Shown: positions 59,092 to 63,275, counted from the stretch's first letter. The stretch is 64,000 nucleotides of DNA from Cytophagaceae bacterium (GCA_027488815.1 JAIYAX010000026.1:203812-267811); one strand, 5' to 3'. A program made the numbers and translations. Notes: generated by a model from the sequence alone, not told the origin.

Positions 59092-59173
59092 GGGATTGAA
59101 AAGCTTATCAGGTGAGGACACCTGGCATAAAGGATAAAAAAAGGCACAAGTCGCAGACTTGCGCCAGCAAGGG
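59092..59173. repeat. dispersed hairpin repeat, copy A
   Basis: Shares with copies B and C (63.1-63.3 kb) a GAAAAnCTT...AGG...AGGACACCT block and the 23-base hairpin at 59143-59165 (GGCACAAGTC-GCA-GACTTGCGCC). Also has a CAGGTG/CACCTG stem (59109-59124). On the minus strand the A-C mismatch of the hairpin becomes a G-U pair. Position: downstream of the Fic gene. Confidence 0.8.
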
Positions 59174-59187
59174 AAATAGGTTCCATG

Positions 59188-59970
59188 TTACTTTTCAAAA
59201 AGTAAGGATTGCGGAAGCATAAGCAAGAATGGGACTCCTCTTTCATACTTTAATTCTTCATAAAACAATCCTACCCGAGCTAGATTGTGATAATACGATT
59301 TCAGGTTATTGTAGTAATGCAATTCGCTTGGTATATACCAGGCCTTTTCTCCTAGTTTTGAAGACAGAAACCATTTTTCAAGCAATCTTGCAGTTCTGCC
59401 ATTGCCATCGTTGAATGGATGAATTTTAACAAATACCAAGTGTATCAACGATGCATAATAAAAGGTTTCATCAATTTTTAGATTAAGCACTATTAGATTA
59501 TTCAATTCATTCCAAAACCGTTCATATTCTATTTGCACCAATTGAGCGGATGCTGCTTCATATTCTACACGCTGTGATTGTTGATCCATGATCAACATAT
59601 TACCTTTCCTTATTTGACCTCTTTGTTGTTCGTGCAGTAAATGCAGAGTAGCAATAGCATGGCACTTGTTAAAATGTTCTTTTGATAATGTATGGTCTTT
59701 TGCGAATTCGTACGCAGCATATAAGTCATTTGGCTTTTCAGTCAAGTTAGGCAGGTATTCCACATCTAGCATTTTATGCTTTACATAGCTATCCACTTCC
59801 AGAGTTTCACCTTCAATTTTTGAAGAGGACATAACGGAAACAGCCGTTGCAAATTTGAAATTCTCAGCAGTCCACTCTCTTGCTTTTATTTTTTCAAATT
59901 CTTTGTCCAGCTTCACATCTAGTAAGGAAAGCCATGTGTTGTAATACGTATCCGAAAGTAATTTTTCCAT
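59188..59970 (-). CDS. Fic/DOC-family AMP-transferase with N-terminal inhibitory motif
   Basis: A 260-residue class II Fic protein. The catalytic motif HPFNDGNGRTAR starts at His184, with the full set of Pro-Phe, Asp, Gly-Asn-Gly-Arg and second Arg. An N-terminal inhibitory motif S-x-x-x-E-G lies at Ser49-Gly54 (SSKIEG), which would keep the enzyme off by placing Glu53 against the active-site Arg. Fic enzymes transfer AMP from ATP to target proteins. No separate antitoxin gene lies beside it, consistent with self-inhibition. Followed by repeat copy A. Confidence 0.9.
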   Translation of the reverse strand: MEKLLSDTYYNTWLSLLDVKLDKEFEKIKAREWTAENFKFATAVSVMSSSKIEGETLEVDSYVKHKMLDVEYLPNLTEKPNDLYAAYEFAKDHTLSKEHFNKCHAIATLHLLHEQQRGQIRKGNMLIMDQQSQRVEYEAASAQLVQIEYERFWNELNNLIVLNLKIDETFYYASLIHLVFVKIHPFNDGNGRTARLLEKWFLSSKLGEKAWYIPSELHYYNNLKSYYHNLARVGLFYEELKYERGVPFLLMLPQSLLFEK

Positions 59971-60172
59971 ACCTAAACATCTTGTTATATCCGGTAGTAA
60001 TTGGCGGTTTCAGCCTGCTAGTACAAGACAGGATTGTAAAAGTAATGGATTGAGCTTGTCTTTTGGCGTTTCCCAATCCTGTGTTTTTCTTGTTTTTGCA
60101 TTGAGAGCATCTGCCAAGGTGGAGGAAGCTTGACATATAAGGAGACCAGCCTAGGTGTAGCAAAACTTGTTT
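59971..60172. other. structured intergenic region upstream of the Fic gene
   Basis: ACAGGATTG (60028-60036) and CAATCCTGT (60074-60082) are inverted copies, and TTGGCG followed by GTTTC (60001) and by TTTC (60064) forms a near direct repeat. The base pairing and lack of coding sense suggest a leader RNA or a REP-like element. No promoter match is seen. Confidence 0.35.
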
Positions 60173-60625
60173 CTAGATGTTTGCAATCAAAACGACCGCA
60201 CTGCTAACACCGATTAAGACTACCCGATACAAAATACCCAAGAAGAAAGCCTCTTTTGATTTAAAATACATCAACAGGCTAATAGCCAAAATGATAAATA
60301 AAGAGCTCAATCCCACCATCAGCATAGGTCCGGCTCCAGGCCAGGCCATAAGCTTGAACATGATGCCCACACCGATTGAAGAAAAGGCTATTCCTGCAAC
60401 AAAACTTACAATAAGTTTGAGTGGACTTAGCCCCTTGTAGGACGACTTATTAAAGATATGCCTAAGGCGTATGTTATTGAGCAGCGCAAAACCAAGCGGA
60501 TAATGTAAAAGCGAAAGGATAGACAATGAAGTCACAATTAGAGGACCACTCATTGGCACATCGAACAGTTTAAAGACAATGCCAATAAGGGTAATGAAGG
60601 GAAGGATTTTCTCCAGTTTTGACAT
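60173..60625 (-). CDS. GldL-like small membrane protein with internal duplication
   Basis: A 150-residue protein with four to five hydrophobic segments. Two copies of a short motif occur: IGIVFKLFDVPMSGPLIVT (14-32) and VGIMFKLMAWPGAGPMLMV (86-104). The F-K-x-(M/W)-x-x-P-G-A pattern resembles the first helices of the gliding-motility protein GldL and many Bacteroidota membrane proteins that carry the same segment. It is far shorter than GldL and lacks its cytoplasmic coil, so no gliding role is claimed. The ATG at 60625 is chosen to begin just before the first membrane helix. Confidence 0.72.
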   Translation of the reverse strand: MSKLEKILPFITLIGIVFKLFDVPMSGPLIVTSLSILSLLHYPLGFALLNNIRLRHIFNKSSYKGLSPLKLIVSFVAGIAFSSIGVGIMFKLMAWPGAGPMLMVGLSSLFIILAISLLMYFKSKEAFFLGILYRVVLIGVSSAVVLIANI

Positions 60626-60742
60626 ATAGGATGCTCTTTTCGGTATTGAAAGTTCGATTGAGTAGGTAAATCTAAGTATTGTGGGGCATTCTTTCAATTA
60701 AGCTCCAAGGATGCAATGGGATTTTGTTTGGGAGGCCCTGAG

Positions 60743-60804
60743 TTGCAAACCTTGGATAGCTGGTGAAAGGCTGAGTAAGTATTGAAAAACTTGTCAGGTA
60801 AAGA
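60743..60804. repeat. dispersed repeat, partial copy D
   Basis: TTGCAAACnTTGGATAGC, a variable stretch, and AAAACTTGTnAGGT match 63067-63127 at roughly 70% identity with one gap. The 3' hairpin is absent. The copy lies between the GldL-like gene and the restriction enzyme gene. Confidence 0.65.
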
Positions 60805-60859
60805 GCTGCTAATGTGGAGATGCAAGTTCAGAATGGCAGTCAGACTCAAAAAGCTTTTG

Positions 60860-61840
60860 CTAATATGCCCCCAAAAATTTATGCCCGTTGAAGTGAACTA
60901 AATGGTCTGGATTGTCAGCAATCCAAACTTCTGTCTCCCAGGCAACATCCAACATCCACTTCCTAAAGTCATGTCGAGTAAGAAATCCTGTTACAAAGAT
61001 TAGTTCAGCTTTACAATCTTTGAGCATGGCCTTTAACTCTAAAACTCTTGTTTCACTCATTGGACCAGAACTATGAACTGCTTCAATTAAGTAAAGCCAG
61101 TTATTTTTTTCACTATAAGCGATTATATCCGGAAGTTCATCATGAGAAATCTCAAAGAAATTTAGCTTTTTAAGTTCCTCTAATTCTATATGCAGTGTTT
61201 TGTTTGAAGTGTCGCCAATGTATAGTACTGCACAACCGCTACCAAAACGTGGAAGAAATTCCACTATTATTGCTTTTTGTAAAACATTGTGCTCTCCAAG
61301 TGAAAGCTCAATTGGTTTCCCATCAGGAAGTTTTACCGGAATTTTTTCAAGTTCCCTTTTTCGTGAAAGAATATCGGAAAGCGAAGGTTTATCTTTATTG
61401 AATGCATTTAGATTCTTCTTCCAGTCAGGGGTTTTGTATGAAACAATAAGTTGCTTGAAATCCGGATGCAAGGCGTAACCTCTTGTTGGATCATTTGTAG
61501 CAGACCCTTTGTTTATACCGCTATTGACGATGATATTCGCTAGGACAAGTAGTTTTAAATCTTTTCTTCGGATGTCATCATAAGAACCTGATGATATTTT
61601 TTCTTCAAAGTTTTTATTTACTATAGTGATAATATTACGAGATTTGAGATTTGTGTTTTCTTTAGCCTTGCTCCAATCTTTTGTCACACCGGCGACAGCA
61701 AGGAAACTAACGGCCATTCTTTCCAAACCTCTTTCGGTTTTATTCATGGGTATGCCGACGCTTTCTAAAATATCAAGTGCTTCATTTATAATTTTTTGAA
61801 CAGCTTTAGATTTAGTGCTTTTGGATATGTACTTCTTCAT
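60860..61840 (-). CDS. BsuBI/PstI-type restriction endonuclease
   Basis: A 326-residue type II restriction enzyme. The C-terminal half matches the BsuBI/PstI family: YIGDTSNKTLHI, LPDIIAYS (Pro237-Asp238) then LIEAVHSSGPM (Glu253) as the PD-(D/E)xK core, AWETEVWIADNP and HFNGHKFLG. The N-terminal 170 residues are mostly helical and likely bind DNA. BsuBI and PstI cut CTGCAG; the site of this enzyme is unknown. Its start follows the methyltransferase stop after one base, so the methylase is made first. Flanked by repeat copies. Confidence 0.9.
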   Translation of the reverse strand: MKKYISKSTKSKAVQKIINEALDILESVGIPMNKTERGLERMAVSFLAVAGVTKDWSKAKENTNLKSRNIITIVNKNFEEKISSGSYDDIRRKDLKLLVLANIIVNSGINKGSATNDPTRGYALHPDFKQLIVSYKTPDWKKNLNAFNKDKPSLSDILSRKRELEKIPVKLPDGKPIELSLGEHNVLQKAIIVEFLPRFGSGCAVLYIGDTSNKTLHIELEELKKLNFFEISHDELPDIIAYSEKNNWLYLIEAVHSSGPMSETRVLELKAMLKDCKAELIFVTGFLTRHDFRKWMLDVAWETEVWIADNPDHLVHFNGHKFLGAY

Positions 61841-61841
61841 C

Positions 61842-62861
61842 TTAAAAAAGTGTCAACACTTGATTTTGATGTAAGTTGTTTTCAATAATTTCTTCTGCTG
61901 AGTAAAGATCTTCCATTTGGAAACATTCTTTCAATGCTAAAGCCAATTGATAAGCCAAAAGGGGAGGTACTGCATTTCCAATTTGATTAAACCTTTGGGT
62001 TTCATTTCCTGTAAACTCATACCAATCAGGGAAACTTTGAAGTCTTGCCGCTTCAGTATGCAATAGCCTTCTTCTCCGTCCGTCTTTGAGCCTCACACGG
62101 TGCATATCACCTGTTGCTCCCGCAAGATTTCGACACGTCAATGTTCTTGCTGGCTTGTCAGCATATAGGTCTCTTGGGTTAATGCATGAAGATGCTTTTT
62201 CATATTTAGCCACATAAGAGTCCATAGATGCTGTTAAGAATTTACTTTCAGGCGGAGTTGTATACATCAAATCGCCTATCGCTTCTCCAACCGTCACTTT
62301 ATGATGACTCGGTTTGGGGAACGTAAACTTTGCCCTATGTCCGAAAACAAAAAGTCTTTCTCTGTTCTGCGGTACACCAAAGTGTACTGCGTTGATCAAC
62401 TTGAAGTTTATCATATAGCCAAGTTTGCGAAGTTCAGTCAACACCAATTCGAAATACCATTTATTGGTGTACAATAGTCCCCGAACATTCTCGAACATGA
62501 AAACCTTTGGTTGCAACTTCTTAACAGCATCTATAAAAACGGGAAATCCGTCTCTTGCATCTTCCATTCCTTTTTGGTGACCTCCAACACTAAAAGGTTG
62601 ACAAGGTGGGCCACCAATGACAATATCTGCTTGTGGATATTTAAAATCAAGCTCAAGTTTTATAGGAAAACAGTCGCCAATAAGATTTTTGTTATATGTA
62701 TCTGAAGCAGCTTTGTCCATTTCATAGCCAATAGTCTTATAACCCGCTGCTTCAAAACCCAATGACAAACCCCCACAACCAGCAAACAAGTCAATTACAA
62801 CCTCTTTTTCGGTTATTCTCGGCTTAAGTGTTTCGTTTATGTAGTCTATATAATTTATCAT
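61842..62861 (-). CDS. DNA (cytosine-5-)-methyltransferase
   Basis: A 339-residue m5C methyltransferase with motif I (VIDLFAGCGGLSLGFE, 22-37), motif IV (GGPPCQPFS, catalytic Cys87), motif VI (ENVRG, 124-128), motif VIII (NRERLF, 166-171) and motif X (GNAVPP, near 310). The target-recognition region lies between motifs VIII and IX. It protects DNA from the restriction enzyme encoded next to it. That enzyme is PstI-like, whose known partners are N6-adenine methylases, so this pairing is unusual. Start ATG 62861 is chosen because motif I then lies at the usual position. Confidence 0.95.
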   Translation of the reverse strand: MINYIDYINETLKPRITEKEVVIDLFAGCGGLSLGFEAAGYKTIGYEMDKAASDTYNKNLIGDCFPIKLELDFKYPQADIVIGGPPCQPFSVGGHQKGMEDARDGFPVFIDAVKKLQPKVFMFENVRGLLYTNKWYFELVLTELRKLGYMINFKLINAVHFGVPQNRERLFVFGHRAKFTFPKPSHHKVTVGEAIGDLMYTTPPESKFLTASMDSYVAKYEKASSCINPRDLYADKPARTLTCRNLAGATGDMHRVRLKDGRRRRLLHTEAARLQSFPDWYEFTGNETQRFNQIGNAVPPLLAYQLALALKECFQMEDLYSAEEIIENNLHQNQVLTLF

Positions 62862-62876
62862 TGGGTAGGACTTCTC

Positions 62877-62884
62877 CAAAAATA
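62877..62884 (-). promoter_or_regulatory. -7 box of the methyltransferase gene
   Basis: On the minus strand TATTTTTG (62877-62884) is a perfect -7 box. With the start codon at 62861, the leader would be about nine bases. No well-spaced TTG is seen upstream, so control by an added factor or by the methylase itself is possible. Confidence 0.4.
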
Positions 62885-63066
62885 GCAAAAACGACCTTGT
62901 TCTGAATTTGACTTTTCAACAGTTAAGGGTCTTTTCGGCCTTCTTTAACTATTGCTGGTTTCATTAGTGTTTTCACAGTGAGGAGTCAGTACCTCGCTGC
63001 AAGTGATTTTCTCTTAGACCTTGTTTGCCAATGGGGTGATTGACTAACTGATTAGGTCATCAAAAA
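62885..63066. other. intergenic stretch before the repeat pair
   Basis: No gene is seen. One weak hairpin (AGTGAGG ... CCTCGCT, near 62986-63008) is present, with no T run. Confidence 0.3.
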
Positions 63067-63182
63067 TTGCAAACATTGGATAGCGGACGAGGGTCTAAGT
63101 TAGTGTTTAAAACTTGTTAGGTTAGGAGACCTACCAGGGGAAAAACTGAAAAAAGGCACAAATCACAGACTTGCGCCAGCAA
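63067..63182. repeat. dispersed hairpin repeat, copy B (with 5' extension)
   Basis: Bases 63067-63090 match copy D (TTGCAAACATTGGATAGC). Bases 63091-63182 are the first of two 92-base tandem units. The hairpin is at 63155-63177 (GGCACAAATC-ACA-GACTTGCGCC). Its mismatches on the plus strand become two G-U pairs in minus-strand RNA. Confidence 0.85.
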
Positions 63183-63183
63183 G

Positions 63184-63275
63184 GGGGCTAAGTTAGTGTT
63201 GAAAACTTGTTAGGTTAGGACACCTGCTAGGGGAAAAACTGAAAAAAGGCACAAGTCATAGACTTGCGCCAGCAA
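63184..63275. repeat. dispersed hairpin repeat, copy C
   Basis: The second 92-base unit, one base after copy B and differing at about seven positions. The hairpin is at 63248-63270 (GGCACAAGTC-ATA-GACTTGCGCC). It lies just after the 3' end of the broken minus-strand gene at 63318. Confidence 0.9.

What the first reader, a model, noticed from the sequence alone, without database searches (positions are those of the whole stretch)
59092..63275. A dispersed hairpin repeat family brackets the restriction-modification pair and lies beside the Fic gene
Four copies, all in one orientation: A (59092-59173), D (60743-60804, partial), B and C (63067-63275). The nuclease-methylase pair lies between D and B/C. 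B and C are 92-base tandem units with seven differences. The 23-base hairpin differs between copies, yet every plus-strand mismatch (A-C) becomes a G-U pair when read on the minus strand, which is the direction of all genes here. That points to selection on a minus-strand RNA structure, or to a REP-like element copied by a transposase acting elsewhere. The TTGCAAACnTTGGATAGC segment looks like REP elements I associate with this phylum, but that memory is not proof.
Basis: partly seen in the sequence, partly recalled or inferred. Interest (0 to 1): 0.72.

Follow-up and report, generated by a model that had tools for sequence, protein, structure and literature searches.

The report
Orphaned mobile hairpin repeat in Bacteroidota
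The hairpins around this restriction-modification pair are ordinary copies of a small selfish DNA repeat scattered through the genome by a transposase that is now broken, and they share a strand-marking signature (a GCT tag and one fixed G-T mispair) with the repeats of related transposases across the Bacteroidota.

Summary
Window copies A, B, C and the remnant D belong to a dispersed family: 12 hits within 1 mismatch on 7 contigs of the host genome, and about 20 with a model built from other genomes. The hairpin is a REP (repetitive extragenic palindrome). Its cognate transposase (RAYT) lies on contig C6 between inverted copies of the same hairpin. That gene is dead: a TAG stop, catalytic Tyr to Asn, and an invariant Trp to Gly. 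A relative from another family keeps an intact RAYT (79% identical) between perfect copies of the hairpin. The A-C mismatches that read as G-U on the minus strand are not evidence of an RNA. Across 108 Bacteroidota RAYT loci, one non-canonical pair dominates the flanking hairpins: G-T at stem pair 4, behind a 5' GCT tag and before a loop-initial T. I infer that it marks the strand the enzyme should read. Orientation to genes is random in other genomes, so the RNA explanation fails as the cause. The window copies do carry T-tracts and may secondarily act as terminators. The restriction-modification bracketing is probably coincidence. The REP/RAYT kind is known; the GCT/G-T signature was not in the literature I could read.

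The parts
59143..59165 (-). Copy A, outer hairpin H2: GGCGCAAGTCTGCGACTTGTGCC, 10-bp stem with the fixed G-T pair at stem position 4
   Evidence: best match of held-out model R1 in the whole genome, E=1.5e-8
59166..59168 (-). GCT tag of copy A, directly 5' of the hairpin foot
   Evidence: tag logo over 108 RAYT loci
59136..59142 (-). T7 tract after hairpin A, whose stem begins 23 bases beyond the Fic stop codon: terminator-like
59104..59123 (-). Copy A, inner hairpin H1 (AGGTGTCCTCACCTGATAAG)
   Evidence: one of 19 genome copies with at most 3 mismatches, 0 for the reversed control
60743..60804 (-). Remnant D: decayed H1 plus the segment that follows H1 in unit B; no H2 hairpin
63091..63182 (-). 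Repeat unit B (H2, spacer, H1), head-to-tail with unit C
63155..63177 (-). Copy B, hairpin H2 (second G-T pair at stem position 8), followed by T6
   Evidence: R1 E=2.0e-6
63178..63180 (-). GCT tag of copy B
63113..63132 (-). Copy B, decayed inner hairpin H1
   Evidence: 3 mismatches
63184..63275 (-). Repeat unit C (H2, spacer, H1)
63248..63270 (-). Copy C, hairpin H2, followed by T6
   Evidence: R1 E=1.1e-7
63271..63273 (-). GCT tag of copy C
63206..63225 (-). Copy C, inner hairpin H1 (2 mismatches)

Best explanation
The window elements are copies of a Bacteroidota REP family that was disseminated by a REP-associated tyrosine transposase (RAYT, a Y1 HuH enzyme). Shown: the family is dispersed, and a cognate RAYT gene lies between inverted copies of the same hairpin in this genome (dead) and in a relative (intact). 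Shown: the hairpins flanking this branch of RAYTs share one architecture, 5'-GCT-NN-CGC-N5-T..loop..-N5'-GTG-NN-3', with a fixed G-T pair at stem position 4, often followed by a second hairpin. Inferred: the RAYT binds the single-stranded hairpin on the tagged strand only, using the GCT tag, the G-T irregularity and the loop T to tell that strand from its complement, and cuts and joins it at new sites, as E. coli TnpA-REP does in vitro. Inferred: because the cognate RAYT here is dead, this family is now a fossil unless another RAYT acts on it. Inferred and weaker: the window copies, whose hairpins run into T6-T7, may now serve as terminators of the minus-strand genes.
For: Dispersal: 12 near-exact copies, 0 control hits; held-out model R1 ranks the window copy A first in the genome, E=1.5e-8, and finds 20 matches at E<0.03, which include a second subfamily GGTGCGAGC. 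Transposase: 5 PF01797 genes; the C6 RAYT sits between 31-nt arms that are 90% complementary and contain the hairpin; the intact orthologue G064:C60 sits between exact inverted copies. The G064 protein matches NCBIfam REP_Tyr_transpos above cut-off, and its best solved relative by profile and by fold is 4ER8, RAYT bound to a REP hairpin. The C6 copy is dead: TAG, Y145N, W124G, the last two at sites invariant in 34 relatives. Signature: in a scan for hairpins with exactly one non-canonical pair, CGC/GTG occurs 96 times in flanks of 108 RAYTs, the next core 9 times, and 6 times in twice as much control DNA. In the RAYT clade of C6, pair 4 is G-T in 73 of 79 hairpins and never G-C. Tags face outward: upstream 58 to 14, downstream 61 to 11. 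The outer two pairs, which were not used for selection, covary. Close RAYTs carry similar stems, Mantel r=0.42, p=1e-4. RAYT and hairpin co-occur across 97 genomes, Fisher p=3.8e-7.
Against: Copy number here (about 12-20) is low for REPs. No clean empty site was found: at the one orthologous site examined in another genus, two species carry the unit and two carry other sequence. The co-occurrence test does not correct for relatedness, and 38 of 108 RAYT loci lack the exact signature. The composite with H1 is not present at every H2 copy, and no RAYT flanked by H1 was found. Biochemistry of this RAYT group is unknown.
Confidence: 0.88

Rival explanations
1. The hairpins are conserved because they act as minus-strand RNA structures (terminators or 3' mRNA stabilisers); the G-U pairs keep the RNA stem while the DNA drifts.
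For: All three window hairpins run into T6-T7 on the minus strand and look like intrinsic terminators. RNA folds better on the minus strand, -16.1 against -12.9 kcal/mol. In the own genome, 16 of 18 intergenic copies lie 3' of a co-directional gene (two-sided binomial p about 0.001 by my arithmetic).
Against: In genome G036 the same comparison is 12 to 16, and in three other genomes 16 to 9. T-tracts are not general in the own genome (6 of 19). The G-T pair is at one fixed position and present in both inverted flanks of RAYT genes. No Rfam family matches. Gene calls were crude ORFs. A secondary terminator role of the window copies is not excluded (I give it about 0.35).
Confidence: 0.07
2. The repeats bracket the restriction-modification pair because they are its boundaries, for example direct repeats left by insertion of the cassette or used to lose it.
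For: D and B share 46 nt at 76% on either side of the pair. The genes from 59.2 kb to the window end are AT-rich (32-40% GC against 43.7% for the window). Another H2 copy lies beside a C5-methylase on contig C17.
Against: The same family occurs at many other sites beside unrelated genes such as glycosyltransferase, KAP NTPase, Na/H exchanger, ParE toxin and Ig-like secreted proteins. D and B are short and diverged, a poor substrate for recombination. No close relative without the pair was available.
Confidence: 0.05
3. The hairpin is a MITE of another transposon class, and its place beside the C6 RAYT is accidental.
For: MITEs are also short and palindromic; the H1 family has no identified transposase.
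Against: Exact inverted hairpins flank an orthologous RAYT in a different family, and the same architecture recurs at 70 of 108 RAYT loci.
Confidence: 0.02

Closest known systems
RAYT/TnpA-REP subclass 2.6 (Bertels group 5) and its 'atypical' REP-like structures, Quentin et al. 2018, PMC6006769
   Same: Bacteroidetes; about 180 aa; NHVH motif, conserved W, SS tail; gene flanked by hairpins without GT[AG]G, with copies elsewhere in the genome.
   Different: That paper's main text gives no consensus and calls the structures weaker and found by manual inspection. Here they resolve into one signature: GCT tag, fixed G-T at pair 4, 10-bp stem, loop-initial T. Its supplementary Table S1 could not be read.
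GTAG-tagged REPs, E. coli REP y/z and TnpA-REP (PMC8266576, PDB 4ER8)
   Same: Tag directly 5' of an imperfect hairpin; a conserved stem irregularity; RAYT gene between inverted copies; extragenic; strand asymmetric.
   Different: Tag is GCT, not GTAG. The irregularity is one G-T pair near the foot, not the AA/GC bulge in mid-stem.
CGTC-tagged REPs (PMC3733652)
   Same: Short tagged palindromes, also reported from Bacteroidetes.
   Different: Tag differs, and CGTC repeats have no flanking transposase; these do.
REPIN
   Same: In G036 one unit near a RAYT is a pair of inverted H2 hairpins around H1.
   Different: The window units are head-to-tail direct repeats of H2+H1, not inverted pairs.

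Membership tests
REP (repetitive extragenic palindrome) | 20-40 nt palindrome able to fold as a hairpin | tested here: met
   10-bp stem, z about -4 to -6 as DNA or RNA on the tagged strand
REP (repetitive extragenic palindrome) | repeated at many dispersed sites of one genome | tested here: met
   12 near-exact copies on 7 contigs, about 20 by model; fewer than the 'usually >100' of PMC2817692
REP (repetitive extragenic palindrome) | extragenic location | tested here: met
   18 of 19 copies outside ORFs of 80 aa or more
REP (repetitive extragenic palindrome) | cognate RAYT gene flanked by the same hairpin | tested here: met
   C6 in the own genome and G064:C60
GTAG-tagged REP | GT[AG]G directly 5' of the hairpin | tested here: not met
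   tag is GCT in nearly all copies
CGTC-tagged REP | CGTC tag, no dedicated transposase | tested here: not met
   GCT tag, RAYT present
RAYT subclass 2.6 (transposase of this REP) | HuH motif NH[LIV]H, W, about 179 aa, SS motif, Y motif YIH[QN]NP | tested here: met
   G064 orthologue: NHVH, W124, Y145 in YLHYNP (a variant of the motif), 184 aa, S165 S166
RAYT subclass 2.6 (transposase of this REP) | functional catalytic residues in the own-genome copy | tested here: not met
   C6 has TAG, Y145N, W124G
RAYT subclass 2.6 (transposase of this REP) | placement with reference members in a tree | not tested
   reference sequences of the 2018 classification were not available
RAYT subclass 2.6 (transposase of this REP) | binds and cuts its REP as single-stranded DNA | not testable with these tools
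   needs purified protein
REPIN | two REPs in inverted orientation forming one unit | tested here: not met
   window B and C are direct repeats; inverted pairs were seen only at the RAYT and in other genomes
Intrinsic terminator | GC-rich hairpin followed by a T-tract downstream of a gene | tested here: inconclusive
   sequence criterion met by A, B and C; no transcript data

The most novel reading that the evidence does not exclude
Bacteroidota RAYTs (subclass 2.6 and neighbours) read a single phylum-wide recognition code: a GCT tag, a G-T wobble fixed at stem pair 4 and a loop-initial T. This would be a third tagged REP superfamily beside GTAG and CGTC, in which one non-Watson-Crick pair marks the strand to be processed while the rest of the stem is free to co-evolve with each transposase.
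Probability: 0.6. Interest if true: 0.65.

Novelty: new variant of a known kind. Interest (0 to 1): 0.5.

Why it matters
REP elements are among the commonest bacterial repeats, but how they are recognised is worked out only for GTAG types of Proteobacteria. The Bacteroidota types were set aside in the 2018 survey as atypical, with no consensus. A compact signature lets them be found automatically, links each REP family to its RAYT, and makes strand discrimination directly testable by changing one pair (G-T to G-C). It also shows how a hairpin with apparent RNA covariation can be a DNA mobile element, a trap for covariance-based RNA discovery.

Tried and rejected
The RNA explanation was tested by orientation relative to genes and by Rfam and set aside as the primary cause. 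TTGCAAACnTTGGATAGC as a REP was rejected. The other RAYTs in the genome are not the cognate: C10 and C17 have different palindromes, without the GCT-tagged H2 signature, and C4 has yet another. The two other Y1 genes (C18, C10:70040) are a different IS200-like type without these hairpins nearby. Bertels 2017 is not held. Single-sequence folding of the RAYT gave a poor model (pLDDT 41); the alignment-based model (pLDDT 80) was used. A search for an orthologous empty site with one flank found no orthologue; a second found the site, but with other sequences in place of the unit rather than a clean empty site. Association tests are not corrected for phylogeny.

Full report
WHAT IS THERE. Each complete unit, read on the minus strand, is: GCT tag, hairpin H2 (GGCGCAAGTCTGnGACTTGTGCC, 10 pairs, 3-base loop), T-rich spacer, and a second hairpin H1 (consensus CTTGGCAGGTGTCCTCACCTGACAAG). 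B and C are abutting head-to-tail units with 7 differences in 92 bases. D keeps only the decayed H1 and what follows it.

THE FAMILY IS GENOME-WIDE. H2 within 3 mismatches is found on many contigs, 12 copies at 0-1 mismatch; the reversed control pattern gives none. A covariance model R1 built only from hairpins flanking RAYT genes in other, named Bacteroidota genomes ranks the window copy A first in the host genome (E=1.5e-8) and finds 20 matches below E=0.03, including a sister subfamily GCTGGTGCGAGCTTGCAGCTCGTACC. H1 has 19 copies within 3 mismatches, control 0, with and without H2.

THE TRANSPOSASE. The genome holds several Y1 genes. The one on C6 lies between inverted H2 copies, with 31-nt arms that are 90% complementary. 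It carries a TAG, and the catalytic Tyr145 and Trp124, invariant in 34 relatives, are Asn and Gly. It is a fossil. G064, a member of another family of the order, has an intact orthologue (79%) between exact inverted copies of the same hairpin. This protein passes the NCBIfam cut-off for REP-associated tyrosine transposase. By profile and by fold its best solved relative is PDB 4ER8, RAYT bound to a REP hairpin. The other RAYT genes of the genome (C10, C17, C4) are each flanked by a different palindrome, in line with the published one RAYT, one REP family rule (PMC6006769).

THE SIGNATURE. Flanks of 108 related RAYT genes were scanned for hairpins with exactly one non-Watson-Crick pair, without naming a motif. 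CGC/GTG, that is a G-T pair between two C-G pairs, came up 96 times, the next core 9 times, and control DNA of twice the length gave 6. The geometry is strict: GCT tag (T 97%, C 84%, G 64%), two variable pairs, CGC, five variable pairs, a loop that begins with T (96%), and the mirrored arm with GTG. In the branch of the RAYT tree that contains C6, 40 of 42 loci have it. When the central pair is left free, it is G-T in 73 of 79 hairpins and never G-C. The variable pairs covary, including the two outer pairs that were not used in selection. Tags point outward on both sides of the gene. RAYT and stem sequences co-diverge (Mantel r=0.42, p=1e-4), and genomes with such RAYTs carry the hairpins (Fisher p=3.8e-7, Spearman 0.57; relatedness not corrected). 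A second hairpin within 55 nt 3' of H2 is common: 31 of 70, against 4 expected from shuffles and 16 on the 5' side. In genome G036 the dispersed unit is about 90 nt of H2 plus H1 with an abrupt left edge at the tag, the same build as the 92-base unit of the window.

WHAT THE MISMATCH MEANS. Three of the four are the same fixed site, and that site is a hallmark of the hairpins on both sides of RAYT genes. In E. coli the RAYT acts on single-stranded REP but not on its complement, and a conserved stem irregularity and a 5' tag are needed (PMC8266576). I infer the same role here for the G-T pair and GCT; this has not been shown biochemically. Orientation relative to genes argues the same way: random in G036 (12 to 16) and in three other genomes (16 to 9). 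Only the host genome shows a bias, 16 of 18 copies 3' of a co-directional gene. That bias, with the T6-T7 tracts of A, B and C, leaves room for secondary use or tolerance as terminators.

MOBILITY. At one orthologous intergenic site in another genus, two species carry the unit with exact edges and two carry different sequences in its place. This shows turnover of the unit as a block, but not a clean empty site.

THE RESTRICTION-MODIFICATION PAIR AND FIC. The pair is a BsuBI/PstI-type endonuclease and a C5-methylase, in an AT-rich block. Other copies sit beside unrelated genes. I see no evidence that the bracketing is functional.

KNOWN AND NEW. The kind is known: REPs with a RAYT of the Bacteroidetes subclass 2.6, described in 2018 as flanked by atypical structures without GT[AG]G (PMC6006769). 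New in what I could read is the common signature and the fixed G-T pair. It fails the tag test for GTAG and CGTC REPs, so I do not file it under either. The supplementary table of the 2018 paper was not readable here and may list such sequences.

Noticed in passing
window 60860-62888: A BsuBI/PstI-type endonuclease (PF06616) is paired with a C5-cytosine methylase; from memory, the namesake systems use adenine methylases.
   Followed up: no
L022:5760-7780 (G000:C17): A second C5-methylase followed by a gene that may be its endonuclease lies about 350 bases from an H2 copy and close to another RAYT.
   Followed up: partly
L022:8214-8543 (G000:C17): The C17 RAYT carries a 165-nt tandem duplication that contains its own palindromes and the start of its reading frame.
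   Followed up: no
L268 (G000:C4:42500-45500): A further RAYT-like gene, just below the NCBIfam cut-off, is flanked by CATGGTTCGTG-type palindromes that also appear near other repeat copies (L173, L244, L251).
   Followed up: partly
G000, 19 sites (L241-L259): H1 (CTTGGCAGGTGTCCTCACCTGACAAG), an imperfect hairpin with an internal G-A mismatch, is dispersed on its own as well as beside H2; no RAYT flanked by it was found.
   Followed up: partly
G036 (L181-L210): In this complete genome 27 of 30 H2 copies have at least 5 T in the 8 bases after the stem, so the unit itself may spread a terminator-like structure.
   Followed up: partly
L278/L284/L285/L286: At one orthologous intergenic site two species carry the 90-nt unit, one carries a different hairpin cluster and one carries other sequence: a site of repeat turnover.
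   Followed up: partly
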